Below, piece by piece: positions 2,160 through 21,500 of a stretch of 64,000 nt of DNA (positions within the stretch are counted from its first letter, which is position 1; each line of letters begins with the position of its first letter). Where the stretch lies: contig MCGT01000011.1 in NCBI GenBank assembly GCA_002104935.1, forward strand, positions 682,001 to 746,000. The letters run 5' to 3'. The DNA is from Hesseltinella vesiculosa. Lineage: Eukaryota > Mucoromycota > Mucoromycetes > Mucorales > Cunninghamellaceae. The translations under genes were made by a program, and so were the position numbers. The notes under the pieces were generated by a model. It was given only the letters and a program-made list of their open reading frames with translations. It was not told the origin of the DNA and made no database searches.

Positions 2160-3238
2160 GGTTCAATTAGACACCTTTATGTAAAAAAAAAAATGATAAT
2201 GGAAAGCGAAAGAAAAAAAAAACTGCCAGGCAAAAAAAAAATAATAAATAAAAACTGGCCAGAACACAGCAAAAAAAAAAAAAAACCTGGCAGCTGGATG
2301 GCCTCAGCACAAACAAAAATGGCATGGAAACAGCAATATATAATATATAAACGAATGAGGCAGCCAAACAGTGGAAAAATCAGCGGGCACTAGTAGGGCT
2401 CATTTGACCTACAAAATGAAGATTTTCAATGGCTGTAACCTCTTACTGTACAAAAGCGAGGTTCACAGTAGACAATTGAGAGCAGGCAAAAAACCCCCCA
2501 CCCCACTTTTTTAAGCTTGAAAACCTGTAAATTGTAGTAATGTACCGTATTGACCACTTCTTCATCACACTGGGACTTTGTTCATGGTAATGTTGGATTG
2601 CTGATCACCTATAGCCCTGTGTTGGTCAGGAAGCAAGAGCAACAAGCGGCGTATGAATTTGTCGATGTGAAAAAAAAAAAAAAAAAGCAGATACACACAG
2701 CACTTTTGAGTGATTGGACCAATGTGAGATTTCATATGGGCACGCAAATGCATGAATGATGCTGGTGTACAAAAAACCAGGACGATTGGTGGGGGCCACC
2801 CAGCCAACTTTTGATCAGGTTGATGTTGACACTTTTGCTTCCCCGGCAAAAAAAAAAAAAAATGAGGTCACCCGGGCGATCTGATCGAAGGTTGCTTTAT
2901 GAAAATTCACCCCGAATTTTGCACATCAGTGCAAAATCAAGCAATGGCAATGTCATCGACTGATTCTGTATATTGTACAGCGCACTCTGGGATGTTTGAT
3001 CAAGTTTCCATCTTTGGCTCCATGGCGCTTGACTTAGCAAGTTATACACTTGATAGTTTTGACAAAGGCTCTTCGAACATTTCTTGGTGCATCAGGCACG
3101 GTTTGAAAGTGTACAAGTGCAACGGCGACCCCGCGAAATAGGAGTAAACGAGGAAAAGGTGCGGGTTGAAGCATCATTGTACGGGCGAAAAGTATCCTGT
3201 TTGGCTACGTCTACTCGCGTTACCATGTTCATTTTTTA
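2160..3238. other. Intergenic, with a dispersed-repeat copy
   Basis: No gene is supported between the ABC transporter start and the glycosyltransferase stop. The first 250 bases are A-rich leader of the ABC gene with several poly(A) runs. From about 2697 to 2935 there is a diverged copy of a repeat also seen at 38.12 kb and inside every 2.19-kb array unit (shared wording: gattgg-ccaatgtgagattt, atgcatgaatg, gacgattggtgg, ccaacttttgatc). Short open frames here are interrupted and lack family resemblance. Confidence 0.6.
2697..2935. repeat. Dispersed-repeat copy A (diverged)
   Basis: Shares ordered blocks with 38120-38390 and with part of each array unit. Shared anchors are cacttttg-gtgattgga, caatgtgagattt, gcatgaatg, gacgattggtgg and agccaac, and then gatctgatcgaa. 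No coding capacity seen and no clear terminal repeats. Confidence 0.5.
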
Positions 3239-4639: not shown

Positions 4640-4982
4640 GCCACCTACGCATCGACAACAAGATGAGAATCAGATCGATAGAGTAAGAAAAAAAAAAAAA
4701 CTCGTCAGTGGCGCCGTTTTTTTGTTTGTGCTATGCGTAAGGCTATTTTTATGCCAGCAGCAATGCTCTTCCAAACTAATTTTGTCCTCTGTGCATACTA
4801 TGAACAAGGAGCTATATTGTGACTGTTCTTCATCAACCTTCCTTTAGCTAAAACGTTAATCCCAAGGCAGGTCGCCATTTTCCAGGCACAGTGTCATTCA
4901 ATAGAAATTTTTAAAAAAAAAATCAGCCGTTGTCCTTTTTTTTTTTTCTCTTCCTTCTCTATTTTTCTTATTATTTTACCTG
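4640..4982. promoter_or_regulatory. Divergent intergenic promoter region
   Basis: 343 bp between the starts of the minus-strand glycosyltransferase and the plus-strand F-box gene. It must hold both 5' regions. The visible features are poly(A) and poly(T) runs and a pyrimidine-rich tract just before the F-box ATG (about 4935-4980). No defined operator was recognised. Confidence 0.4.
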
Positions 4983-6224
4983 ATGACCAGACCAGTATAT
5001 GCAAAGCTATTGGAGATATTTATGGAATCGAATCGTAGATATGAAGAACGAGTCGCATTTCAGAATCGCCATCTTTCGGGAGCCGAGCCCAACCCGCCAC
5101 CCGTCATGGTGAGAACGAATGATCAAGCCAGCACGATCGCCACCTCTCCTGTTGCCCAGCAGGAAAAGAGCCAAGACATTCTTAGCCTGGGAAAGAGATC
5201 AGTCGATGATGAAGGTCATATCTCTCCACCACAATCACAAGGCAAAAAAATCAAATACGATCTTGAATCATCAGATGCTCACCAACGTGAGCGATTGGAC
5301 ACTCGCACTAATGCTTTTGACCTTGCCCTTATCAATGACGCTGCCTCGTTTAACGTTGTACTGGACGAGATCCAACCTCTTCCGCCTTCTGACATTGTCA
5401 ATGATGTCGGGAAAAGTGTTATGAGTGATATCAACTTCCACCAAGTCATCAAAAGGATTATTCAAAAGTGCAGCCAGCCATCTGTTATCGATGATAGAAC
5501 TCAGCTGCCAGACATGCTTGGGCATTTGAAGCTCCCCGAGCTATTGTGGGCTCACATCCTGCAATATCTTCCCCTCAGCACAGCCGCCCATTGCCGCCTG
5601 GTTTCAGCCCGATGGAACTATGTGATCCAACGGTCGCCCACTTGGTTCCACCGCATGTGGCCCGCCCAACGAAATCGATTCTTGAGCGTGAACCGCTCCA
5701 AAACTGACCTCCTTTGCACCACTCTGCCTTTCCACTCCTTGCTCAACTCCCATATCAGTGGTCGATTTATGTGTGACAGTTGCTATGCCTATCCCAAATT
5801 CACTGCTTTCAAGCACGGACCCCAGGCCGTTCTCCCCGTTTTCATTGGTCCCTTCCTTCACGAGCGCTACACAGACATCGACGACGAAGGAATCCCCATC
5901 CCCCCTGCATTTTTCATGCCTTCGCCTGGTGACCCTTACTATATCAACTTGTGCCTTCCCTGCCGCCGAGCTTACTTCTCTCGCCGCCCAGAGCCCATGC
6001 CAAGTTGCCCAACTGACCTGACCATCACATCGAAACAAGCCAGCCGGAGCTTTGCCGTGTTCAAAACCCAGTTGAAAGGTCGTGGATTCAGACCAAATGC
6101 ACTTCCTATCCACGAAGTCATTCGCATTGCGCGCCACAAACTTGGCGGGGATGTTGGTATCGCCTGCCATCGCTCCTCCAACACCCCAGCTGCTTCTCCT
6201 ATGCCCAAGATTGAATCCGCATGA
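4983..6224 (+). CDS. F-box protein with a C-terminal Cys-pair domain
   Basis: Single exon, 413 residues. The F-box lies at about residues 183-226 (LPELLWAHILQYLPLS, then CRLVSARWNYVI and a W-rich end), so the protein should dock to Skp1 and serve as substrate adaptor of an SCF ubiquitin ligase. Residues 1-150 are polar and probably disordered. The C-terminal half has two CxxC pairs, CDSC near residue 264 and CLPC near 324, separated by about 55 residues, compatible with a zinc-binding fold of the kind seen in several fungal F-box proteins; that fold is inferred. No leucine-rich or WD repeats follow. A decayed copy of residues about 310-365 is found 12 kb downstream (18.06-18.21 kb), beyond the tandem array. 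Substrate is unknown. Confidence 0.8.
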   Translation: MTRPVYAKLLEIFMESNRRYEERVAFQNRHLSGAEPNPPPVMVRTNDQASTIATSPVAQQEKSQDILSLGKRSVDDEGHISPPQSQGKKIKYDLESSDAHQRERLDTRTNAFDLALINDAASFNVVLDEIQPLPPSDIVNDVGKSVMSDINFHQVIKRIIQKCSQPSVIDDRTQLPDMLGHLKLPELLWAHILQYLPLSTAAHCRLVSARWNYVIQRSPTWFHRMWPAQRNRFLSVNRSKTDLLCTTLPFHSLLNSHISGRFMCDSCYAYPKFTAFKHGPQAVLPVFIGPFLHERYTDIDDEGIPIPPAFFMPSPGDPYYINLCLPCRRAYFSRRPEPMPSCPTDLTITSKQASRSFAVFKTQLKGRGFRPNALPIHEVIRIARHKLGGDVGIACHRSSNTPAASPMPKIESA

Positions 6225-6645
6225 AGCTTCAACCTTTTTTTTTCGGCTACAGCACTTCCCGTGTTCTATCAATATGATCCACCATACCCACACTCTTTAG
6301 TTTCCATATTTTTTCCTAGTCCCTCAGCGTGTTCAGTAAAAAAATCCATGATTTGCTAATGTTTCTCTGTTGCAAGTTAAGCGCCAAACGTTTGAGTAGG
6401 AGACTTACTCAGGCTAAAAACGCCCAATTATACCACCCTTCGGTCCAAGCAACCGTACCTCTCTTCTCCACGAATATGCCACTGGGTTGTGATTTTTAAC
6501 ACTGGTCAATTCTCACCAAGGGCGATCAGCCCGAGCAGTTTGGGGTGGAGGTCCCTTTTTTTTTGGCTGAAAAAAGAAAACCGTGTCGGACATTGTAATT
6601 TTTTTTTTTTTTTTCGTTTTGCCTTTTTTTTTAGGCTGGGGAAAA
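6225..6645. other. F-box 3' region with a segment duplicated beyond the array
   Basis: Non-coding stretch downstream of the F-box stop. Bases about 6483-6585 (starting ctgggttgtgatttttaaca) recur with few changes at about 17520-17625 on the same strand. The tandem array begins at about 6646, directly after a T-rich stretch and a G/A-rich junction. Confidence 0.6.
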
Positions 6646-7334
6646 GGAGGTCCCAAAAACTACTTGATACCAAATTGGCTGGGCAACCTTCATAGATTGA
6701 CTTGATTTTTTCACTATCCATATATTGCTTTAAAACCTGAACCCATGCAAAATTTAATCTTGATTCATTCATTCAAAACTGCAATAGAGTAATATCTTTT
6801 TTTGTAAAAAGCAAAGGGTCTCTCTGGCGACCTGGCCAAAAAATCCTCCATTTTCATCAAAAATTTAAGCGTCCAATCTTTTGCATGTAACTGATACTTG
6901 ATGAGGTGGGATGGAAGTCACAATAAAAAGCTTTGTATGGGACGTGGTACCAAGCTAGAACAGCCAGAAATCATGGCTGCCCAGCCATTTTGCAAGGAAG
7001 GCCCATCTTTTTTTAGGTGAGCCTAGTTCTTCACCGTCTTATCCAAGTGCCGTATAATTTTAACTGTCAATATTTCCCATTAAGTACCAATTCCAAGTAC
7101 AGTTTGGTGTGAATCATATCATCTGCCATCCTTTCCCACTATGTACCAAAAACGCAACCATGTCGATGAAAAGCACTGGGGAAAAACGGGAATCACTGCC
7201 GCTTAGGCTTGAGGCTTTGGTCCCAAGAATTAACTAAGCCGTGCTTGGATTGGTTGAACCTTAAATCCTATCTGTAAAACAAAAAAAATTGTTTTTTTTT
7301 CTTTCGTTCTTTTCTCTTTCTCTTTTTTCATCTC

Positions 7335-7508
7335 TCCTTCCTTCATGGAAGCATACTTGCCCTTCTTTCGTGGAAGCATACTTTTCCTTCCTTCGTGGAA
7401 GCATACTTTTCCTTCCTTCGTGGAAGCATACTTGTCCTTCCTTCGTGGAAGCATACTTTTCCTTCCTTCGTGGAAGCATACTTTTCCTTCCTTCGTGGAA
7501 GCATACTG
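7335..7508. repeat. 25-bp minisatellite, 7 copies, unit 1
   Basis: Seven consecutive copies of a 25-bp motif (consensus ttccttccttcgtggaagc plus atactt). Copies 1 and 4 end in ttg rather than ttt, copy 1 reads cttcatgg, copy 2 reads ccttctttcg, and the last ends in actgggg. Each copy carries the short inverted pair CTTC-GTG-GAAG. It lies 240-410 bp upstream of the array gene. The same copies in the same order occur at about 9530-9703, 11721-11894 and 13916-14089. Confidence 0.95.
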
Positions 7509-7746
7509 GGGAGACTTTCTCCCTCTTTTTATTTTTTTTTATCAAAAATACAAATGAAAAAAAAAAAAAAAAAAAACATGAGAATCGTGCCTACCATACT
7601 AGTTAAGGATTCTTGAAAGAAAGCCTTTCCTTTTAACATGTAAAAGCATGGTAGTTTTAAATTCCAATCAGGAGCAAGCTGTTTTTTAAAAATATAACTT
7701 CGATCAGTAGCAAACTGATCTTTGCTTTCTTTTGCCTTTTTCAACC

Positions 7747-8649
7747 ATGCCGTGCTTTTCTTGCCATCATCCGCAAAAACAAGTTTTACTAAAAGGAACC
7801 ATTTTAAAGACAAAAACAGAAACCGATATTTTAGCAGCTTTGGCGCGATGCACACCAAACCGCCCTCTCCATGTTGTGAAGAGACAGCAGCACGACGACT
7901 TTTGCTACGTGCACTTTCATAATGAAACGCATGCTGCAACATTCTATTTGTTTTATGCAAAACAACGACGCACAGTTTGTGAGCAGTTGCCCACCATCAT
8001 CGTCAGACCAGCTCTCCTTCCCAACAAGCAGCCAGTTGCTTATGTAAGCCTTTTTTTACCTGGACTCTTTACTGAATGAACTAACGTGATCTTTTCTGGA
8101 TAGGACATGACAAACGTGCAAACCACACTCGATCGGAACTCTTTATGCGCTTGCCAAACCACACGAGCAACTTCCTCGAAGCAGCCAACCACACCAACCC
8201 CATCGACCAATGAATGTCATGTTGGAGATGAAAATGACGTTGCTCTGGAAACACAACACCATGGCGAACCTGATATCCTTCCTACTGAACTATATGATGT
8301 TGATGAGAGTGAAACCACACGAGCAACTTCCTCGAAGCAGCCAACCACACCAACCCCATCGACCAATGAATGTCATGTTGGAGATGAAAATGACGTTGCT
8401 CTGGAAACACAACACCTTGGCGAACCTGGTATCCTTCCTACTGAACTATATGATGTTGATGAGAGTGAAACCCCACGTCCCAAGAACCCATCCCCCCACA
8501 TTGACAATACTCAGCATGGATGGAGACTACAACTCAAACATGTTATAGCCGGCTTGAAGCGAGAGATTGATGAAAAAGACGACGAATTGCATCGAATGAA
8601 GAAAAAACTCAAGCTTCTATGTGAAATTCTTGAAGATTCAGAAATGTGA
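7747..8649 (+). CDS. Array gene copy 1: RRM-like / coiled-coil protein of unknown function
   Basis: Two exons, 7747-8043 and 8104-8649, joined by a 60-nt intron (gtaagc … gatag), 280 residues. I do not recognise the family. Residues 1-99: an N-terminal CFSCHH cluster, then a beta-alpha-beta-beta-alpha-beta pattern with an RNP2-like VLLKGTIL and an RNP1-like DFCYVHFH, suggesting an RRM-type nucleic-acid-binding fold (inference). Residues about 118-221 are two 52-residue direct repeats (TTRATSSKQPTTPTPSTNEC start, ELYDVDESE end), duplicated at DNA level with a 156-bp period. The last about 50 residues are highly charged and coiled-coil-like (LKREIDEKDDELHRMKKKLK). The start is the first ATG in frame after a T-rich leader. 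Four tandem copies exist in the window. An intact reading frame in three of four copies argues for a real gene. Confidence 0.55.
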
Positions 8650-8732
8650 AAATATTCAAATACCCATTTACCCCTTTTTTACCTCTCTTTTCTTGTTCCA
8701 TCTTTTACCCAAAAAAATAAATGGCAAATGCT

Positions 8733-8845
8733 CCTCCACAGTGCTTTTGGATGATGGGATTGATATGAAATTTTGTATGTGAGCACAAACGCATGAATGT
8801 TGACGGTGGTGAAGAACCAGGTCGGATGATGCAGGTCAGTGGAGG
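8733..8845. repeat. Dispersed-repeat edge inside each array unit (unit 1/2 junction shown)
   Basis: Reads cagtgcttttggatgatggg, then gattgatatgaaattttgta, acgcatgaatgttgacggtg and accaggtcggatg, matching the first half of copies A and B. The array unit boundary falls just to its right; equivalent stretches occur in units 2, 3 and 4 (near 10928, 13120, 15315). Confidence 0.5.
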
Positions 8846-9529
8846 TCCCAAAAACTACTTGATACCAAATTGGCTGGGCAACCTTCATAGATTGACTTGA
8901 TTTTTTCACTATCCATATACTGCATTAAAACCTGAACCCATGCAAAATTTAATCTTGATTCATTCATTCAAAACTGCAATAGAGTAATATCTTTTTTTGT
9001 AAAAAGCAAAGGGTCTCTCTGGCGACCTGGCCAAAAAATCCTCCATTTTCATCAAAAATTTAAGCGTCCAATCTTTTGCATGTAACTGATACTTGATGAG
9101 GTGGGATGGAAGTCACAATAAAAAGCTTTGTATGGGACGTGGTACCAAGCTAGAACAGCCAGAAATCATGGCTGCCCAGCCATTTTGCAAGGAAGGCCCA
9201 TCTTTTTTTTAGGTGAGCCTAGTTCTTCACCGTCTTATCCAAGTGCCGTATAATTTTAACTGTCAATATTTCCCATTAAGTACCAATTCCAAGTACAGTT
9301 TGGTGTGAATCATATCATCTGCCATCCTTTCCCACTATGTACCAAAAACGCAACCATGTCGATGAAAAGCACTGGGGAAAAACGGGAATCACTGCCGCTT
9401 AGGCTTGAGGCTTTGGTCCCAAGAATTAACTAAGCCGTGCTTGGATTGGTTGAACCTTAAATCCTATCTGTAAAACAAAAAAAATTGTTTTTTTTTCTTT
9501 CGTTCTTTTCTCTTTCTCTTTTTTCATCT

Positions 9530-9703
9530 CTCCTTCCTTCATGGAAGCATACTTGCCCTTCTTTCGTGGAAGCATACTTTTCCTTCCTTCGTGGAAGCAT
9601 ACTTTTCCTTCCTTCGTGGAAGCATACTTGTCCTTCCTTCGTGGAAGCATACTTTTCCTTCCTTCGTGGAAGCATACTTTTCCTTCCTTCGTGGAAGCAT
9701 ACT
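9530..9703. repeat. 25-bp minisatellite, unit 2
   Basis: Same seven-copy 25-bp tract as in unit 1, with the same variant copies in the same order. Confidence 0.93.
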
Positions 9704-9941
9704 GGGGAGACTTTCTCCCTCTTTTTATTTTTTTTTATCAAAAATACAAATGAAAAAAAAAAAAAAAAAAACATGAGAATCGTGCCTACCATACTAGTTA
9801 AGGATTCTTGAAAGAAAGCCTTTCCTTTTAACATGTAAAAGCATGGTAGTTTTAAATTCCAATCAGGAGCAAGCTGTTTTTTAAAAATATAACTTCGATC
9901 AGTAGCAAACTGATCTTTGCTTTCTTTTGCCTTTTTCAACC

Positions 9942-10843
9942 ATGCCGTGCTTTTCTTGCCATCATCCGCAAAAACAAGTTTTACTAAAAGGAACCATTTT
10001 AAAGACAAAAACAGAAACCGATATTTTAGCAGCTTTGGCGCGATGCACACCAAACCGCCCTCTCCATGTTGTGAAGAGACAGCAGCACGACGACTTTTGC
10101 TACGTGCACTTTCATAATGAAACGCATGCTGCAACATTCTATTTGTTTTATGCAAAACAACGACGCACAGTTTGTGAGCAGTTGCCCACCATCATCGTCA
10201 GACCAGCTCTCCTTCCCAACAAGCAGCCAGTTGCTTATGTAAGCCTTTTTTTACCTGGACTCTTTACTGAATGAACTAACGTGATCTTTTCTGGATAGGA
10301 CATGACAAACGTGCAAACCACACTCGATCGGAACTCTTTATGCGCTTGCCAAACCACACGAGCAACTTCCTCGAAGCAGCCAACCACACCAACCCCATCG
10401 ACCAATGAATGTCATGTTGGAGATGAAAATGACGTTGCTCTGGAAACACAACACCATGGCGAACCTGATATCCTTCCTACTGAACTATATGATGTTGATG
10501 AGAGTGAAACCACACGAGCAACTTCCTCGAAGCAGCCAACCACACCAACCCCATCGACCAATGAATGTCATGTTGGAGATGAAAATGACGTTGCTCTGGA
10601 AACACAACACCTTGGCGAACCTGGTATCCTTCCTACTGAACTATATGATGTTGATGAGAGTGAAACCCCACGTCCCAAGAACCCATCCCCCACATTGACA
10701 ATACTCAGCATGGATGGAGACTACAACTCAAACATGTTATAGCCGGCTTGAAGCGAGAGATTGATGAAAAAGACGACGAATTGCATCGAATGAAGAAAAA
10801 ACTCAAGCTTCTATGTGAAATTCTTGAAGATTCAGAAATGTGA
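9942..10843 (+). pseudogene. Array gene copy 2, frameshifted in exon 2
   Basis: Same gene as copy 1 with exon 1 at 9942-10238 and exon 2 from 10299. A C-tract in exon 2 (about 10687-10691) has five C instead of the six in the other copies. The frame shifts after KNPSP and stops at 10740-10742, so the C-terminal coiled coil is lost; the original stop would be at 10841-10843. Either this copy is damaged or the base call in the homopolymer is wrong. Confidence 0.55.
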
Positions 10844-11720
10844 AAATATTCAAATACCCATTTACCCCTTTTTTACCTCTCTTTTCTTGTTCCATCTTTT
10901 ACCCAAAAAAATAAATGGCAAATGCTCCTCCACAGTGCTTTTGGATGATGGGATTGATATGAAATTTTGTATGTGAGCACAAACGCATGAATGTTGACGG
11001 TGGTGAAGAACCAGGTCGGATGATGCAGGTCAGTGGAGGTCCCAAAAACTACTTGATACCAAATTGGCTGGGCAACCTTCATAGATTGACTTGATTTTTC
11101 ACTATCCATATACTGCATTAAAACCTGAACCCATGCAAAATTTAATCTTGATTCATTCATTCAAAACTGCAATAGAGTAATATCTTTTTTTGTAAAAAGC
11201 AAAGGGTCTCTCTGGCGACCTGGCCAAAAATCCTCCATTTTCATCAAAAATTTAAGCGTCCAATCTTTTGCATGTAACTGATACTTGATGAGGTGGGATG
11301 GAAGTCACAATAAAAAGCTTTGTATGGGACGTGGTACCAAGCTAGAACAGCCAGAAATCATGGCTGCCCAGCCATTTTGCAAGGAAGGCCCATCTTTTTT
11401 TTAGGTGAGCCTAGTTCTTCACCGTCTTATCCAAGTGCCGTATAATTTTAACTGTCAATATTTCCCATTAAGTACCAATTCCAAGTACAGTTTGGTGTGA
11501 ATCATATCATCTGCCATCCTTTCCCACTATGTACCAAAAACGCAACCATGTCGATGAAAAGCACTGGGGAAAAACGGGAATCACTGCCGCTTAGGCTTGA
11601 GGCTTTGGTCCCAAGAATTAACTAAGCCGTGCTTGGATTGGTTGAACCTTAAATCCTATCTGTAAAACAAAAAAAATTGTTTTTTTTCTTTCGTTCTTTT
11701 CTCTTTCTCTTTTTTCATCT

Positions 11721-11894
11721 CTCCTTCCTTCATGGAAGCATACTTGCCCTTCTTTCGTGGAAGCATACTTTTCCTTCCTTCGTGGAAGCATACTTTTCCT
11801 TCCTTCGTGGAAGCATACTTGTCCTTCCTTCGTGGAAGCATACTTTTCCTTCCTTCGTGGAAGCATACTTTTCCTTCCTTCGTGGAAGCATACT
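11721..11894. repeat. 25-bp minisatellite, unit 3
   Basis: Same seven-copy tract. The poly(T) run just upstream is one base shorter than in the other units. Confidence 0.93.
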
Positions 11895-12132
11895 GGGGAG
11901 ACTTTCTCCCTCTTTTTATTTTTTTTTATCAAAAATACAAATGAAAAAAAAAAAAAAAAAAACATGAGAATCGTGCCTACCATACTAGTTAAGGATTCTT
12001 GAAAGAAAGCCTTTCCTTTTAACATGTAAAAGCATGGTAGTTTTAAATTCCAATCAGGAGCAAGCTGTTTTTTAAAAATATAACTTCGATCAGTAGCAAA
12101 CTGATCTTTGCTTTCTTTTGCCTTTTTCAACC

Positions 12133-13035
12133 ATGCCGTGCTTTTCTTGCCATCATCCGCAAAAACAAGTTTTACTAAAAGGAACCATTTTAAAGACAAA
12201 AACAGAAACCGATATTTTAGCAGCTTTGGCGCGATGCACACCAAACCGCCCTCTCCATGTTGTGAAGAGACAGCAGCACGACGACTTTTGCTACGTGCAC
12301 TTTCATAATGAAACGCATGCTGCAACATTCTATTTGTTTTATGCAAAACAACGACGCACAGTTTGTGAGCAGTTGCCCACCATCATCGTCAGACCAGCTC
12401 TCCTTCCCAACAAGCAGCCAGTTGCTTATGTAAGCCTTTTTTTACCTGGACTCTTTACTGAATGAACTAACGTGATCTTTTCTGGATAGGACATGACAAA
12501 CGTGCAAACCACACTCGATCGGAACTCTTTATGCGCTTGCCAAACCACACGAGCAACTTCCTCGAAGCAGCCAACCACACCAACCCCATCGACCAATGAA
12601 TGTCATGTTGGAGATGAAAATGACGTTGCTCTGGAAACACAACACCATGGCGAACCTGATATCCTTCCTACTGAACTATATGATGTTGATGAGAGTGAAA
12701 CCACACGAGCAACTTCCTCGAAGCAGCCAACCACACCAACCCCATCGACCAATGAATGTCATGTTGGAGATGAAAATGACGTTGCTCTGGAAACACAACA
12801 CCTTGGCGAACCTGGTATCCTTCCTACTGAACTATATGATGTTGATGAGAGTGAAACCCCACGTCCCAAGAACCCATCCCCCCACATTGACAATACTCAG
12901 CATGGATGGAGACTACAACTCAAACATGTTATAGCCGGCTTGAAGCGAGAGATTGATGAAAAAGACGACGAATTGCATCGAATGAAGAAAAAACTCAAGC
13001 TTCTATGTGAAATTCTTGAAGATTCAGAAATGTGA
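12133..13035 (+). CDS. Array gene copy 3: RRM-like / coiled-coil protein
   Basis: Exons 12133-12429 and 12490-13035. The predicted 280-residue protein is identical to copy 1, including both 52-residue repeats and the C-terminal coiled coil. Function unknown. Confidence 0.55.
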
Positions 13036-13915
13036 AAATATTCAAATACCCATTTACCCCTTTTTTACCTCTCTTTTCTTGTTCCATCTTTTACCCAAAA
13101 AAATAAATGGCAAATGCTCCTCCACAGTGCTTTTGGATGATGGGATTGATATGAAATTTTGTATGTGAGCACAAACGCATGAATGTTGACGGTGGTGAAG
13201 AACCAGGTCGGATGATGCAGGTCAGTGGAGGTCCCAAAAACTACTTGATACCAAATTGGCTGGGCAACCTTCATAGATTGACTTGATTTTTTCACTATCC
13301 ATATACTGCATTAAAACCTGAACCCATGCAAAATTTAATCTTGATTCATTCATTCAAAACTGCAATAGAGTAATATCTTTTTTTGTAAAAAGCAAAGGGT
13401 CTCTCTGGCGACCTGGCCAAAAAATCCTCCATTTTCATCAAAAATTTAAGCGTCCAATCTTTTGCATGTAACTGATACTTGATGAGGTGGGATGGAAGTC
13501 ACAATAAAAAGCTTTGTATGGGACGTGGTACCAAGCTAGAACAGCCAGAAATCATGGCTGCCCAGCCATTTTGCAAGGAAGGCCCATCTTTTTTTAGGTG
13601 AGCCTAGTTCTTCACCGTCTTATCCAAGTGCCGTATAATTTTAACTGTCAATATTTCCCATTAAGTACCAATTCCAAGTACAGTTTGGTGTGAATCATAT
13701 CATCTGCCATCCTTTCCCACTATGTACCAAAAACGCAACCATGTCGATGAAAAGCACTGGGGAAAAACGGGAATCACTGCCGCTTAGGCTTGAGGCTTTG
13801 GTCCCAAGAATTAACTAAGCCGTGCTTGGATTGGTTGAACCTTAAATCCTATCTGTAAAACAAAAAAAATTGTTTTTTTTTCTTTCGTTCTTTTCTCTTT
13901 CTCTTTTTTCATCTC

Positions 13916-14089
13916 TCCTTCCTTCATGGAAGCATACTTGCCCTTCTTTCGTGGAAGCATACTTTTCCTTCCTTCGTGGAAGCATACTTTTCCTTCCTTC
14001 GTGGAAGCATACTTGTCCTTCCTTCGTGGAAGCATACTTTTCCTTCCTTCGTGGAAGCATACTTTTCCTTCCTTCGTGGAAGCATACTG
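13916..14089. repeat. 25-bp minisatellite, unit 4
   Basis: Same seven-copy tract as in units 1-3. Confidence 0.93.
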
Positions 14090-14327
14090 GGGAGACTTTC
14101 TCCCTCTTTTTATTTTTTTTTATCAAAAATACAAATGAAAAAAAAAAAAAAAAAAAACATGAGAATCGTGCCTACCATACTAGTTAAGGATTCTTGAAAG
14201 AAAGCCTTTCCTTTTAACATGTAAAAGCATGGTAGTTTTAAATTCCAATCAGGAGCAAGCTGTTTTTTAAAAATATAACTTCGATCAGTAGCAAACTGAT
14301 CTTTGCTTTCTTTTGCCTTTTTCAACC

Positions 14328-15230
14328 ATGCCGTGCTTTTCTTGCCATCATCCGCAAAAACAAGTTTTACTAAAAGGAACCATTTTAAAGACAAAAACAG
14401 AAACCGATATTTTAGCAGCTTTGGCGCGATGCACACCAAACCGCCCTCTCCATGTTGTGAAGAGACAGCAGCACGACGACTTTTGCTACGTGCACTTTCA
14501 TAATGAAACGCATGCTGCAACATTCTATTTGTTTTATGCAAAACAACGACGCACAGTTTGTGAGCAGTTGCCCACCATCATCGTCAGACCAGCTCTCCTT
14601 CCCAACAAGCAGCCAGTTGCTTATGTAAGCCTTTTTTTACCTGGACTCTTTACTGAATGAACTAACGTGATCTTTTCTGGATAGGACATGACAAACGTGC
14701 AAACCACACTCGATCGGAACTCTTTATGCGCTTGCCAAACCACACGAGCAACTTCCTCGAAGCAGCCAACCACACCAACCCCATCGACCAATGAATGTCA
14801 TGTTGGAGATGAAAATGACGTTGCTCTGGAAACACAACACCATGGCGAACCTGATATCCTTCCTACTGAACTATATGATGTTGATGAGAGTGAAACCACA
14901 CGAGCAACTTCCTCGAAGCAGCCAACCACACCAACCCCATCGACCAATGAATGTCATGTTGGAGATGAAAATGACGTTGCTCTGGAAACACAACACCTTG
15001 GCGAACCTGGTATCCTTCCTACTGAACTATATGATGTTGATGAGAGTGAAACCCCACGTCCCAAGAACCCATCCCCCCACATTGACAATACTCAGCATGG
15101 ATGGAGACTACAACTCAAACATGTTATAGCCGGCTTGAAGCGAGAGATTGATGAAAAAGACGACGAATTGCATCGAATGAAGAAAAAACTCAAGCTTCTA
15201 TGTGAAATTCTTGAAGATTCAGAAATGTGA
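14328..15230 (+). CDS. Array gene copy 4: RRM-like / coiled-coil protein
   Basis: Exons 14328-14624 and 14685-15230. The predicted protein is identical to copies 1 and 3. It is the last copy; the partial fifth unit stops before the minisatellite, so it has no gene. Confidence 0.55.
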
Positions 15231-16410
15231 AAATATTCAAATACCCATTTACCCCTTTTTTACCTCTCTTTTCTTGTTCCATCTTTTACCCAAAAAAATA
15301 AATGGCAAATGCTCCTCCACAGTGCTTTTGGATGATGGGATTGATATGAAATTTTGTATGTGAGCACAAACGCATGAATGTTGACGGTGGTGAAGAACCA
15401 GGTCGGATGATGCAGGTCAGTGGAGGTCCCAAAAACTACTTGATACCAAATTGGCTGGGCAACCTTCATAGATTGACTTGATTTTTTCACTATCCATATA
15501 CTGCATTAAAACCTGAACCCATGCAAAATTTAATCTTGATTCATTCATTCAAAACTGCAATAGAGTAATATCTTTTTTTGTAAAAAGCAAAGGGTCTCTC
15601 TGGCGACCTGGCCAAAAAATCCTCCATTTTCATCAAAAATTTAAGCGTCCAATCTTTTGCATGTAACTGATACTTGATGAGGTGGGATGGAAGTCACAAT
15701 AAAAAGCTTTGTATGGGACGTGGTACCAAGCTAGAACAGCCAGAAATCATGGCTGCCCAGCCATTTTGCAAGGAAGGCCCATCTTTTTTTAGGTGAGCCT
15801 AGTTCTTCACCGTCTTATCCAAGTGCCGTATAATTTTAACTGTCAATATTTCCCATTAAGTACCAATTCCAAGTACAGTTTGGTGTGAATCATATCATCT
15901 GCCATCCTTTCCCACTATGTACCAAAAACGCAACGGCTGGAGCTGGCCACCCTCCCAGCACACGCTGCGCTTGACCAGAATTGAATCCCAGCCGCAGTAA
16001 ACTGGTCAACCAGTAACCCATGGTGGGTAAGCCTAGGCGCACTTTTTTTCTTTTGTTTGTTTGTTTTTTCAATGAAAAACTTGGAATCTCTGTTGACAAC
16101 CGCTAAATGGCCTAGTCTAAAATGCAATGAGGATGCTTGGTGCAAGGTAATCTATTATTGGCATACTTGTTGTATGCTAATCCTCGGAAAAGAGTACAAA
16201 AAAAGAGCAGCAACTCACTCTTTTTATCTCTTTTGTTTGTTTACATCAAGAAGTTATCGTCTGGGCCCTGATGGACAATGTTACGTTATGAATGTGTTGT
16301 TGCCTGATATCAAGTAAGTCTGACGCATGAAAAAAGAAGCAAGGCTTACATAGTTTTTTTCAACTTCTTTTCAAAAGGCTACCGTGATGTCTCGAGTCCA
16401 CATGCATGTT

Positions 16411-16531
16411 GCAGGCTGCCCTAGCAAGGAACTTGCCTTCTGGTGGCGCGCCCGTACATGACGGATCAATAGATCTCTGATTGTGCCCGTGTTGGCCATA
16501 GGAAACTATTTACGGATAGTTTGCAGCCTGC
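16411..16531. repeat. 121-bp element with 9-bp inverted ends, copy 1
   Basis: Starts with GCAGGCTGC and ends with its exact inverse, GCAGCCTGC. An apparently identical copy follows at 16600-16720, so the direct-repeat period is 189 bp. The inside contains ctagcaaggaacttgcc and a ggcgcgcccg GC-rich core. It could be a miniature inverted-repeat element or simply part of a local duplication; no target-site duplication is clear. Confidence 0.6.
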
Positions 16532-16599
16532 CTGGTGCTGGTGGTCTTGGTGCTGGTGGTCTCTCCTCTTGGCTCTGCCTTTGTTGGCGTGGTGATGTC

Positions 16600-16720
16600 G
16601 CAGGCTGCCCTAGCAAGGAACTTGCCTTCTGGTGGCGCGCCCGTACATGACGGATCAATAGATCTCTGATTGTGCCCGTGTTGGCCATAGGAAACTATTT
16701 ACGGATAGTTTGCAGCCTGC
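16600..16720. repeat. 121-bp element, copy 2
   Basis: Second copy of the element at 16411-16531, again bounded by GCAGGCTGC and GCAGCCTGC. It is followed at once by the 16-bp minisatellite. Confidence 0.6.
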
Positions 16721-16915
16721 TTGGTGCTGGTGATGCCTTGGTGTGGTAGTGCCTTGGTGTGGCGGAGCCTTGGTGTGGCGGAGCCTTGGTGTGGTGGTGC
16801 TGTGATATGATGGTGCCTTGATATGATGGTGCCTTGGTGTGGTGGTGCCTTGGTGTGGCGGTGCCTTGTTATGAAGGTGCCTTGTTATGAAGGTGCCTTG
16901 GTGTGGTTGTCTCTT
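16721..16915. repeat. 16-bp minisatellite, about 11 copies
   Basis: Imperfect repeats of gtgccttggtgtggtg with two variant classes (…gatatgatg and …gttatgaag). The tract is G/T-rich on the plus strand. Because 16 is not a multiple of 3, minus-strand translation gives a 16-residue HQGTTTPRH-type repeat in an open frame; this is taken as a by-product. Confidence 0.85.
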
Positions 16916-18054
16916 TGCGTCATCCTGCATCGCTAAGGATGGCGGGTGGTGGTGGGCCTTCCTCTCTCCTCTTGGAGTCTGTTGATTGGTGTGCCAGTCC
17001 TTTTCATTGGCACACTTTTTTTTTATTCACAATAAAAGATGTTTACTTGCATCTCGTTCTTTACTGAATTTTATGACCGAAAAAATAAGCACATTTAACT
17101 ACCCAACGCTTTAGAATGAATGGATCAATGTCAAAATTTTCACGGATGCAGAGTAATCATATCATTCTATGCTGGTTCAACGTGGCCGACGCTGTAGGCA
17201 CTGGGCTACTGCCAGCCTTTGCCAACCTTGCCCGCCCACCTGCCCGATACTGATTCCCTCATATCACCTTCAATATTGCTCCTTTTTTCATGCGCTTTGG
17301 TTCTATGGATAGCTGTGAAGGTTAGCTTTCTAACGGTGCCATTGGAAGAGCGGAAAAAATGATATTGGGATTTTTCCGGGCCAAGAGAAGAGACACTCTC
17401 TGGAAAAAAAGAAAAAAAAAAAAAAAAAAAGAGGAAATTGTTAGAGGTTGGGCTTGGACGCAGCTTACGGCAGGCAAGTTTGGGCAGGAGAAAACTTGGT
17501 CTAGCTCTGGAGGAAGTGATCGAGGTGGGTTGTGATTTTTAACACTGGTCAATTCTCACCAAGGGAGATCAGCCTGAGCAGTTTGGAGGTGGAGATCAGG
17601 CTGCGTTTCTTTGGCTGAAAAAAGGCATGAAACTATGAATAAATGAAAGTTATGAACTTCTGCTCCCTTGCATCACCTTTTGCACAGTCTTGCCGTGCTT
17701 TCGCTTTTTTTTTTTTGAGCTGCTAAATCAGAACGTATCAAGTTGGCTGGGCTGCTTCGCAAATGCTGGCCAAATGCACAAAAAAAAAAAAAATCCCACC
17801 TGATTGTTTGCTTGCCAAAGATGTTATTTCAGGTTGGTTAATCCCAAGTTACTCATCTAGCCTCCTTAAGGACCATGGTATAGTGTGTTCTTAATTGCTT
17901 CTGCAAGTAAATGCTGTTCTTTTCGGTGGAGGGCGTTGCTTGTCCTTGCGCACAAGCAGGACAGACAGACTCAGCTTACAGTATACAGAACATCTCCATG
18001 CCTAATCATTTCAGAGAATTGATTAACAATACGCGACGAAACTGGTCTTGGCGG

Positions 18055-18215
18055 AATCATGCCATCGCCTGGTGACCCTTACTACATCAACCTATGACTT
18101 CCATCACGCCCAGATTTCTTTTGCCGCCTCCCGGAGCCCATGCCATGTTGCCTTGATGACATGACAATCACGTTGAAGCAAGCAAGTAAGAATTTTGGCG
18201 TCTTCATGTCTCGTG
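18055..18215 (+). pseudogene. Decayed fragment of the F-box gene
   Basis: About 160 bp aligning colinearly, without frameshift, to bases 5915-6075 of the F-box gene. It begins atgccatcgcctggtgaccc where the parent has atgccttcgcctggtgaccc. Translated, it matches parent residues about 310-365 (MPSPGDPYYINL, then PEPMP, then TITLKQAS). The first Cys of the parent CLPC pair is now a TGA stop and the second is Ser. There is no F-box or start, so this is a relic. Confidence 0.85.
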
Positions 18216-18561
18216 AACTCGATGAAAGCGCTGTCCTCATCCTCTGTTGCTCGTCACAAACTTTTTTTTTTTCAGCATTACATGTCATTGCCCTACTCAT
18301 AGCCCTGCTCTTTGTCCTGCTCATGGTCGCCTGCTTTCTCTTTCCTAACCCATCGACTGTCAAGCCAGTGTATTTTTTCTACATTTCTTTTGAGGAATAT
18401 GTGTATTGTAAAGATAATAAAGTAACAAATTTTTTACGGCAAGTGTAAATAGAAATTAAGAGGTGTAGAATGATAAAAGAGCGGATGAAATGAACTAGAA
18501 TGGAATTTTTTTTTTTGGAGAGCGAAGAGAAGAGAAAGGGGGGATGCCTAGGAATACTGGT

Positions 18562-21500
18562 TTAATCTTCGGGAAGGAAGATGCGTTCGACGAACTGCTC
18601 ATAAGACCATGTGGCGACCTTGTGACGTTGGGTGATGGTCTTGACGTCGCGGGCACGCTGGGATATGATGGAAGGGGTGTTGGTATGGACACAGGCCCGG
18701 CAAGCAGCGATGGCGGTGGCTCGGACCATGGGTCCCAAGGTGGCATGCGAGACCGTCATTTGGTTGAATAGTGGGCCAAACATGGGTATTTTGGGATCGC
18801 GATGCAAGTGGATCGAATAAAGACCGTCAGGTAGAGGGGTCACCACAATCTGAGCATTACCAAAGTCACCACCAATCGTGCCCACATGATAATCTCGGTT
18901 GTGCTCGTTCCAGACAATGTGAACATGATCGTTGCCAATATGCCGTTTCTACGCGAAAGTGTGCCAAGAAAAAAAAAAAAACGCATGAGATGCCACCAGC
19001 CCTCGTTTCCTTCCTTACCTTTTTCAGTTGTTTGGGATCATTGACATCGGTAGGCATTTTGGTCACATCATGGAAGATGATTTCGACAGTCGACGAGCAA
19101 AAGTACGTAGCCTTGTTCCCATTCGTCAGGTTGCGTTCCAGACCACCTAGGTAGCCGGTGTGCTTAGCGATGTCGATTTCCCAGCCGAGGCTCTTCACAA
19201 AGGCGTCGTAGGCAGCACTACCACTGTTGTTGTGCAGGATACTCTGCTCATCTTCTTGGTCTGCGCCGACATACATTAAGCCAATCTTCATGGTTTCATG
19301 CCTTCAGTAAGGGAAAAAAAGAGGGTGAGAAGGCAATTCCGCTGGTGATACCCAAGCTGGGTGCATGATGGCCAAAGCTTACCCAGGTTTACGATCCAGC
19401 CCACGCAGGTCTCTAAACAAGGCTGAGGTTTTGTTGAGCATCTGGAATGAACCGTCCTTGAGTTGACTATAACTAAGCAATCCCAGGTGGCTGATCAGGA
19501 GTCGTGACTGTTGGAAAGGAACATTGGTCTTTTCAGGGTCCCGCGGCAGGGCGGGGCAAAAGTCTTTTTGGGCCGAGAAGTTGGTTGAGAGCAGAGACGA
19601 GGTGGGTGCAGGGGTCTGGCTGCTTCGTCGTTGGACAGCATTGAGCTTGGCATACCACACTCGTCTAAGGTAAAAAAAAAAAGAGTCAGCTTCAAACATG
19701 GCAACCGCACAAGCAGGTGAGGACTTACGGATCAGACTCTCTCTGTTGATGGTTATCACATTCACTGGTCAAAAAGTCGTTGAGCTGCTCGCTCAGGCGC
19801 CCAAGCATGCCGACCTGCAAGGATGATAATGTTGACGGGGAGGTCATGGACACATTGCTGGAACTCATGCAGTCTGGATGGTCTTCACCAATGCTATAAA
19901 ATAAAGGGTTGGTATGCTGCAGTCGTTGGCTAGCGCTCGGTCACTTACTCTTGTAACAAGCTACTCAACGTATCAGGAGATGAAGTCAAGCTGCTATTGG
20001 CCAATTTTTGGTGCAAGAAATAAAAAAAAAGTCAGTGTCTTCATCATTTCCAGAAGAGAATCACAAGCTTACGAATGAGAGCTCTGGTCCCGTTTCTTGA
20101 CAAGGAGGCCGGGGCGTAATGTAAAGCCTTGCTCACGTTCCAACAGATGGTCCTCGGCGGCTTCGAATTTGGCGCCATCGTCCAAAGGTGAAAAGGTGAG
20201 AGGTGAGTCGCAGAATGGTGGCTCTAGATGGGCATCCCAGGCATAGCGGCCGGTTAAGTCGCGAATGACAATGCGTGTTTCGGCGGGTTTGGTGTCGGTA
20301 GGGGGCAGTTCGACAAAGGCAATGATGGTGGTATCGTTGAAGGAGAAATATTGGAAATGGCGGTATTCAATGTCATTCTTGTCGTCCGTAGAGGATGACA
20401 AGCCGGGCCCAACAATGGTGCTACACGCCGTTGCGGGCCCATATGGCGGAGGGAAATTGTTAAAGTGATGTAGCAAGTGCAGCAACACGGCCTCCGCAGC
20501 ATCCTAGTTTTCATAAGAAGTAGACGCGTCAGTGTCTGGGGGAAAGCTCCTCTTCTTTATAACTGCCTTACGTTGACACAGCTTTGGTCAGCCTGGTTGA
20601 CTTCTGAGCTGTCAGTTGGTGTTGGGTCCTGCATGACTTGGGGTCGTTTTTCAGTCAGCAAGAACTTGAATGGCACCTCTTTTTTCTTGGCCCGGCTGGA
20701 TTTGCGAATCAATGGAGGATGAGGTAGCATTTTCTCGGCACGGCCGCCCTGAAAGAGAAAAAGAGACGTGGAGAGAGATGGAGTGGGTGAAGTGAGTTTC
20801 TGCTATGGGTAGCACAATGAATGTGGTTGCTTACGGCAGAAAAGTGCATAGCCTCGTCAATGACATCAAACACGAGCTGGCACAGCTCAGTGTCGGTGAG
20901 GATTTCAGGCTCAATGATCATTAGCCACTCCAAAATACAGGTGAACAACTTGGCAATGATAATTCCTAGAGGAAGTACGAGTCAGCGGTGTCTGTGTCCT
21001 CTCATCCTAAGGATGCTCATCCTTTACCTCGGCCACTTCGCACATTGCTCTTGTAAAACTTCAGCTGTACATTCAGTGCATCGATGATTCTGGTGAGTAC
21101 TTCTTGGATGATGTCCTTGTAGGAAAAATAAAAAAAAAAGAGGTTGGTCTGTCTGCTAAAGCACTGCTGCCCAATCACCCATCCACCCGCACTTACGCCT
21201 TCAGGATCTAAGGTTCGGTTGTAGATTTGTGATATTAGGACCAAGCAGTCCACCACCGCATTGATCACCGAGATATTGCACCAATACAAATGACTGACCA
21301 AGACGGTAATACATTCTTGAATCAAGGATCGTTGGGGACTACAAGAGAGTTGTGAGAAACGTGTGCGTGTTCTTTGAGCGATAAAAAAATGCCCTGGTGA
21401 CTTACGTTTTGGTGGCCAAGAGTTCATCCATGATCAAAGAACACGTCGCCCCAAGCAGCATACAATGGACTTCTGTTTCCTCTTCACAGAGGGTTGTTGC

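What the first reader, a model, noticed from the sequence alone, without database searches (positions are those of the whole stretch)
6646..15934. Recent tandem amplification of a whole gene: four 2.19-kb units plus a partial fifth
Seen directly: units of 2195, 2194, 2192 and 2195 bp are nearly identical, including introns, spacer and minisatellite, with differences almost only in homopolymer length. The rest of the window is single-copy, so this is the one strongly accessory region. Either dosage of the unknown protein is under selection, or the region is an unstable repeat locus that gene conversion keeps uniform. The unit edge lies next to a dispersed repeat (about 8733-8845), a plausible site of the founding unequal exchange.
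Basis: seen in the sequence. Interest (0 to 1): 0.8.

Follow-up and report, generated by a model that had tools for sequence, protein, structure and literature searches.

The report
Tandem gene array on repeat segments
In the fungus Hesseltinella vesiculosa a small gene has been copied four times in a row, almost letter for letter, between five copies of a 514-base piece of a scattered repeat; this is an ordinary way for genes to multiply, although the scattered repeat itself looks as if it might have moved around as a circle.

Summary
Window 6646-15934 carries four units (2195, 2194, 2192, 2195 bp) and a shorter fifth. The four gene-bearing parts have no substitution between them, only homopolymer-length differences. 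Each unit is a 514-bp piece of a dispersed repeat of about 2.5 kb (called X here) plus a 1.68-kb insert with a two-exon gene. The "partial fifth" is a fifth complete 514-bp piece, and the array sits inside one X copy. The 514-bp direct repeats set the unit edges, not the diverged repeat at about 8733-8845. Both chimeric junctions occur only in the array, four times each. Best explanation: one illegitimate joining placed the insert between two 514-bp copies, and homologous exchange between these raised the number to four. The gene encodes a 280-aa protein with a predicted RRM fold, of a family found here only in H. vesiculosa. The 9 long dispersed X copies found are all near-unit-length circular permutations, which hints at a circular intermediate; short copies were left out. 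Copy number rests on the assembly and needs reads.

The parts
6483..6645 (+). left part of the host repeat X (X unit positions 2339-2499)
   Evidence: similar sequence precedes the 514-bp segment in copies on C47, C57, C34, C12, C26 and C23
6646..7158 (+). 514-bp X segment, copy 1 (513 bp here); two substitutions against copies 2-5
7159..8840 (+). insert copy 1 (gene-bearing, 1682 bp)
7335..7507 (+). 25-bp minisatellite, 6.9 copies (also at 9531-9703, 11722-11894, 13916-14088)
7747..8649 (+). gene copy 1: exon 7747-8043, intron 8044-8103, exon 8104-8649; 280 aa
   Evidence: splice agrees with the NCBI protein DM01DRAFT_1406958
8688..8837 (+). tail of the insert: diverged dispersed repeat, of the same superfamily as the start of the 514-bp segment read in reverse
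8841..9354 (+). 514-bp X segment, copy 2
9355..11034 (+). insert copy 2
9942..10742 (+). gene copy 2: frame shifted by a C run of five instead of six; 246 aa
11035..11546 (+). 514-bp X segment, copy 3 (512 bp)
11547..13226 (+). insert copy 3
12133..13035 (+). gene copy 3, 280 aa
13227..13739 (+). 514-bp X segment, copy 4 (513 bp)
13740..15421 (+). insert copy 4
14328..15230 (+). gene copy 4, 280 aa
15422..15934 (+). 514-bp X segment, copy 5 (the 'partial fifth unit')
15935..17624 (+). right part of the host repeat X (X unit positions 515-2436), with its own minisatellite

Best explanation
Shown: five direct 514-bp copies of a dispersed repeat segment alternate with four identical 1.68-kb gene-bearing inserts, all inside one copy of that repeat. 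Inferred: an illegitimate joining (end joining, template switching, or entry of a small chimeric circle) once placed the insert between two 514-bp copies: X-left / 514 / insert / 514 / X-right. The 514-bp direct repeats then served as homology for unequal sister-chromatid exchange (or break-induced replication to the same effect), which raised the insert from one copy to four and could shrink it again. The gene, which encodes a species-restricted protein with an RRM-like domain, is the passenger; whether its dosage was selected is open.
For: Unit edges coincide with the ends of the 514-bp segment at each unit. The outermost flanks are the two parts of X in the right order. Segment copy 1 differs from copies 2-5 at segment positions 80 and 84, each side bearing one private base against 18 of 18 other aligned segments; repeated exchange between a left and a right segment gives this when the crossovers fall to the right of position 84, that is in 430 of the 514 bases. 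Both chimeric junctions occur 4 times each in the array and at no other place with up to 2 mismatches. No substitution in the four 1.68-kb inserts shows that the amplification is recent or kept uniform. Duplication by unequal crossover between flanking repeats is an established route (PMC4232551, passages).
Against: The founding single-insert state is not seen. The same final sequence would arise if a tandem circle entered in one step. No donor locus for the insert was found in the assembly: the larger partial relatives are 381 bp at 97% on C47 and 282 bp at 83% on C12, besides two matches of under 60 bp. Without a donor the founder junctions cannot be tested for microhomology. Copy number depends on the assembly alone.
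Confidence: 0.6

Rival explanations
1. A chimeric circle (514-bp X segment plus insert), perhaps a multimer from rolling replication, entered the X copy by homologous recombination in the 514-bp segment and gave the tandem array in one or few steps.
For: The nine long dispersed X copies found are near-unit-length circular permutations by the reference coordinates of their ends: C23 302 to 304, C12 178 to 183, C12 452 to 502, C34 2068 to 2197, C57 2396 to 2375, C30 2470 to 2392, C26 320 to 244, C13 544 to 299, window 2339 to 2436. X is also in tandem on C47. The pattern is like that of the Zygosaccharomyces bailii segment in wine yeast, for which the authors infer a circular intermediate (PMC3053389; start of abstract and passages). 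The left segment differs from the others as expected for a host/circle hybrid.
Against: No circle was observed. The permuted copies concern X, not the gene-bearing unit. The two models leave the same sequence at this locus. The nine were chosen by length (about 1.7 kb of X or more), which itself favours near-unit lengths on the short side, and no target-site duplication was recognised.
Confidence: 0.25
2. Assembly artefact: copy number over- or under-stated by mis-joined long reads.
For: Six of the eight differences between units are homopolymer lengths, as long-read consensus errors are, so units cannot be told apart inside the array. The X segment nearest the end of contig C47 has 9 mismatches in 511 bases against the copy two units on, and several single-base gaps, as a poorly covered contig end may have.
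Against: The two chimeric junctions with the two X flanks require at least one 514/insert/514 arrangement, if the joins are true; and segment copy 1 is told from copies 2-5 by two substitutions. Neither point fixes the number at four.
Confidence: 0.1
3. The array is held at several copies by selection for dosage of the RRM-like protein.
For: 3 of 4 copies are open. Against the C12 fragment, nonsynonymous change is lower than synonymous (22 differences over 208.3 sites against 24 over 58.7), so the domain has been under constraint at some time.
Against: One copy has a shifted frame (possibly an error). No expression or strain data. Among relatives in the genome, 5 of 18 rows and 9 of 42 rows have stops inside the match. 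Against the C47 fragment there are 2 synonymous and 3 nonsynonymous changes, no signal either way.
Confidence: 0.15
4. The 2195-bp unit is itself a transposon (an LTR element with 514-bp LTRs, or a terminal-inverted-repeat element) that landed in tandem.
For: Both ends of the unit contain diverged relatives of one superfamily in opposite orientation.
Against: The unit and its junctions were found nowhere else in the genome. Elsewhere the complete 514-bp segment continues into X on one or both sides instead of ending. The insert's tail lacks the outer part of the superfamily.
Confidence: 0.05

Closest known systems
CUP1 tandem arrays of Saccharomyces cerevisiae (PMC4232551; start of abstract, passages)
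   Same: a small tandem unit with a gene; copy number changed by unequal crossing-over
   Different: the passages describe CUP1 units joined at breakpoints in genes and intergenic DNA with 3 bp of homology or less; here the unit is bounded by a segment of a dispersed repeat and sits inside a copy of it, homology at the founder junctions could not be tested, and the gene's function is unknown
Zygosaccharomyces bailii 17-kb segment in wine yeast, thought to spread through extrachromosomal circles (PMC3053389; start of abstract, passages)
   Same: copies at different chromosomal places are circular permutations; tandem entry proposed by the authors
   Different: there a transferred multi-gene segment with a tested ARS; here a native repeat of about 2.5 kb without long open frames, no origin tested, and the gene array is a separate derivative
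Circles and amplification through direct repeats such as Ty LTRs in yeast (PMC4751563; listing and start of abstract only)
   Same: direct repeats of a dispersed element are the homology used
   Different: the 514-bp segment is an internal part of its element, not an LTR

Membership tests
Tandem gene array amplified through flanking direct repeats | direct repeats at both edges of every unit, in the same register | tested here: met
   five copies of the 514-bp segment starting at 6646, 8841, 11035, 13227, 15422
Tandem gene array amplified through flanking direct repeats | units nearly identical, including non-coding parts | tested here: met
   no substitution among the four inserts
Tandem gene array amplified through flanking direct repeats | copy number varies among strains or cells | not testable with these tools
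   one genome of the species was held, no reads
Dispersed repeat spread through circular DNA (Z. bailii segment type) | copies are unit-length circular permutations | tested here: met
   9 of the 9 fetched dispersed copies with about 1.7 kb or more of X have end coordinates within 244 bp of one unit and different start points. Not counted: the C47 array and shorter copies (C43, C34:284 kb, C56, C25, C2, C16, C67, C1); some short matches were not fetched. The searches scored 40 of 66 and 40 of 58 candidates, so more copies may exist
Dispersed repeat spread through circular DNA (Z. bailii segment type) | circular molecule present | not testable with these tools
   no reads or DNA
LTR retrotransposon | the 514-bp segment as a terminal repeat at the element's border | tested here: not met
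   in the dispersed copies with a complete segment the repeat X continues on one or both sides
RRM-fold protein | beta-alpha-beta-beta-alpha-beta domain | tested here: met
RRM-fold protein | sequence match to Pfam RRM models | tested here: not met
   no Pfam family at E up to 1 for the 280-aa protein or for the 4 members of A1

The most novel reading that the evidence does not exclude
X is a native repeat of about 2.5 kb that spreads through the Hesseltinella genome as a circle, inserting in permuted form, and such circles can pick up genes: the array would be a captured gene carried by an X-derived chimeric circle that re-entered an X copy by homology and multiplied there.
Probability: 0.2. 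Interest if true: 0.6.

Novelty: new member of a known kind. Interest (0 to 1): 0.35.

Why it matters
It is a clean natural example, in an early-diverging fungus, of a dispersed-repeat fragment setting the edges of a recent gene amplification. Because the left repeat can be told from the others by two bases, the exchange points could be followed in strains and cells. The permuted copies of X would make a circular intermediate in a filamentous fungus directly testable.

Tried and rejected
Considered and dropped: the 514-bp segment as a solo LTR or discrete transposon (complete copies elsewhere continue into X on one or both sides); a ribozyme-bearing retroelement (Rfam at E up to 5 gave 16 weak matches, all under their gathering scores and none a ribozyme); the repeat at 8733-8845 as the founding site. 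A second place, C12:109.9-115.6 kb, also has foreign DNA (2.9 kb) between two direct X pieces, but these are only 89% alike over 271 columns, so it gives no sign of a recent event. No target-site duplication was recognised at the nine permuted copies; the longest shared words in the 25 bases on either side were 3-6 bases. The protein has no significant Pfam match: none at E up to 1, two chance-level rows for exon 2 (E 0.47 and 3). Homologues were found only in H. vesiculosa: 2 proteins and 11, in a database of about 5.8 billion proteins searched by shared words, so distant relatives may be missed. The unit has no megablast match in the plasmid collection. Chance estimates for the near-unit lengths (4e-7 for ends uniform over the unit, 6e-4 for ends confined to the observed zone) ignore that short copies were left out and that some copies have internal gaps in the minisatellite part, and are too optimistic. 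Against my reading: no donor locus, no circle, no single-insert ancestor was found.

Full report
Setting. The window is C3:682001-746000 of a genome of 27.05 Mb in 85 contigs. The array's gene is the NCBI entry 'hypothetical protein DM01DRAFT_1406958, partial' of Hesseltinella vesiculosa, on a contig of 777,386 bases, the length of C3 (for C3, for the protein). That this genome was sequenced with PacBio reads for a 2017 study of adenine methylation is my recollection; the passage seen in PMC8298701 is a figure legend that lists the species among others.

The array. A 20-mer self-comparison shows one long repeated region, 6646-15935, with offsets of 2195 and its near multiples. The four units measure 2195, 2194, 2192 and 2195 bp and the fifth 513 bp. 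The alignment has eight variable columns: six changes of homopolymer length, and two substitutions, both in the first 514-bp segment. The inserts have no substitution at all. Each insert has a 25-bp minisatellite of 6.9 copies, a gene of two exons (297 and 546 bp, with a 60-bp intron), an internal 156-bp duplication in exon 2, and a tail that belongs to a scattered, diverged repeat. Copies 1, 3 and 4 encode 280 aa. Copy 2 lacks one C in a run of six and ends after 246 aa, which may be a consensus error.

The edges. A genome search with the first 760 bases of a unit gave full-length matches only in the array, but 9 places outside it match positions 1-514 and stop there; others match shorter parts (40 of 66 candidates scored). 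Extracting flanks showed that in complete copies elsewhere this segment continues on one or both sides into a larger repeat, called X here. In the window the left X flank lies only to the left of the first segment, and the right X flank only to the right of the fifth. So the array is nested in one X copy, which spans 6483-6645 and 15935-17624 outside it. The two junctions between insert and segment occur four times each in the array and nowhere else with up to two mismatches. The insert has no other full copy; its larger partial relatives are 381 bp at 97% on C47 and 282 bp at 83% on C12.

Order of events. Segment copy 1 has T and T at positions 80 and 84; copies 2-5 have C and A; the 18 other segments in the alignment have T and A, 18 of 18. 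Segments without these positions, or under about 87% identity, were not put into that alignment. Each side thus has one private change. If the founder was left segment / insert / right segment, each unequal exchange with its crossover to the right of position 84 yields new internal segments of the right-hand type, as seen. A multimeric circle entering by homology would give the same picture. The absence of substitutions in four inserts says that the multiplication is young, or that exchange keeps the units uniform.

The dispersed repeat X. With a C47 unit (2499 bp) doubled as reference, the long dispersed copies cover close to one unit but start at different points: C23 302 to 304, C12 178 to 183 (split by 2.9 kb of other DNA), C12 452 to 502, C34 2068 to 2197, C57 2396 to 2375, C30 2470 to 2392, C26 320 to 244, C13 544 to 299, and the window copy 2339 to 2436. 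These are all 9 fetched copies holding about 1.7 kb or more; shorter pieces (C43, C34:284 kb, C56, C25, C2, C16, C67, C1) were left out, some weak matches were not fetched, and the lists were capped. Some copies lack part of the minisatellite. C47 begins with X in tandem. X has no stop-to-stop frame above 110 codons. The pattern resembles that described for the Z. bailii segment in wine yeast (PMC3053389; passages). It is suggestive and no proof: no target-site duplication was recognised.

Verdict. It is a new member of a known kind. The part that might surprise a specialist is the permuted, near-unit-length state of X. The number of units needs spanning reads.

Noticed in passing
L009-L011 (C47:11805-14519 against 17540-20262): A 2.7-kb inverted repeat, 99.4% identical, with genes of the RRM-like family in both arms and the 514-bp segment (to position 506) near both outer ends; the inner edge of the left arm abuts a 97% fragment of the array's insert.
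   Followed up: partly
L042 (C45:230900-234400) and L043 (C63:13400-16900): Head-to-head pairs of the family genes in palindromes of about 1.35 kb (90% and 96% between arms), with a relative of the insert's tail about 0.4 kb outside on one side.
   Followed up: partly
window 5914-6063 and 18057-18206: 150 bp of the F-box gene (4905-6224) recur at 77% identity on the other side of the X copy.
   Followed up: no
L038 (C2:351500-353000) and L039 (C5:266800-268300): Foldback elements of about 0.74 and 1.03 kb whose arms are relatives of both the insert's tail and the start of the 514-bp segment.
   Followed up: partly
L023 and L031 (C2:410389-410599 and 419600-419899): A 514-bp segment split by about 9 kb of other DNA, with positions 202-209 present on both sides, like an 8-bp target-site duplication of a large insertion.
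   Followed up: no
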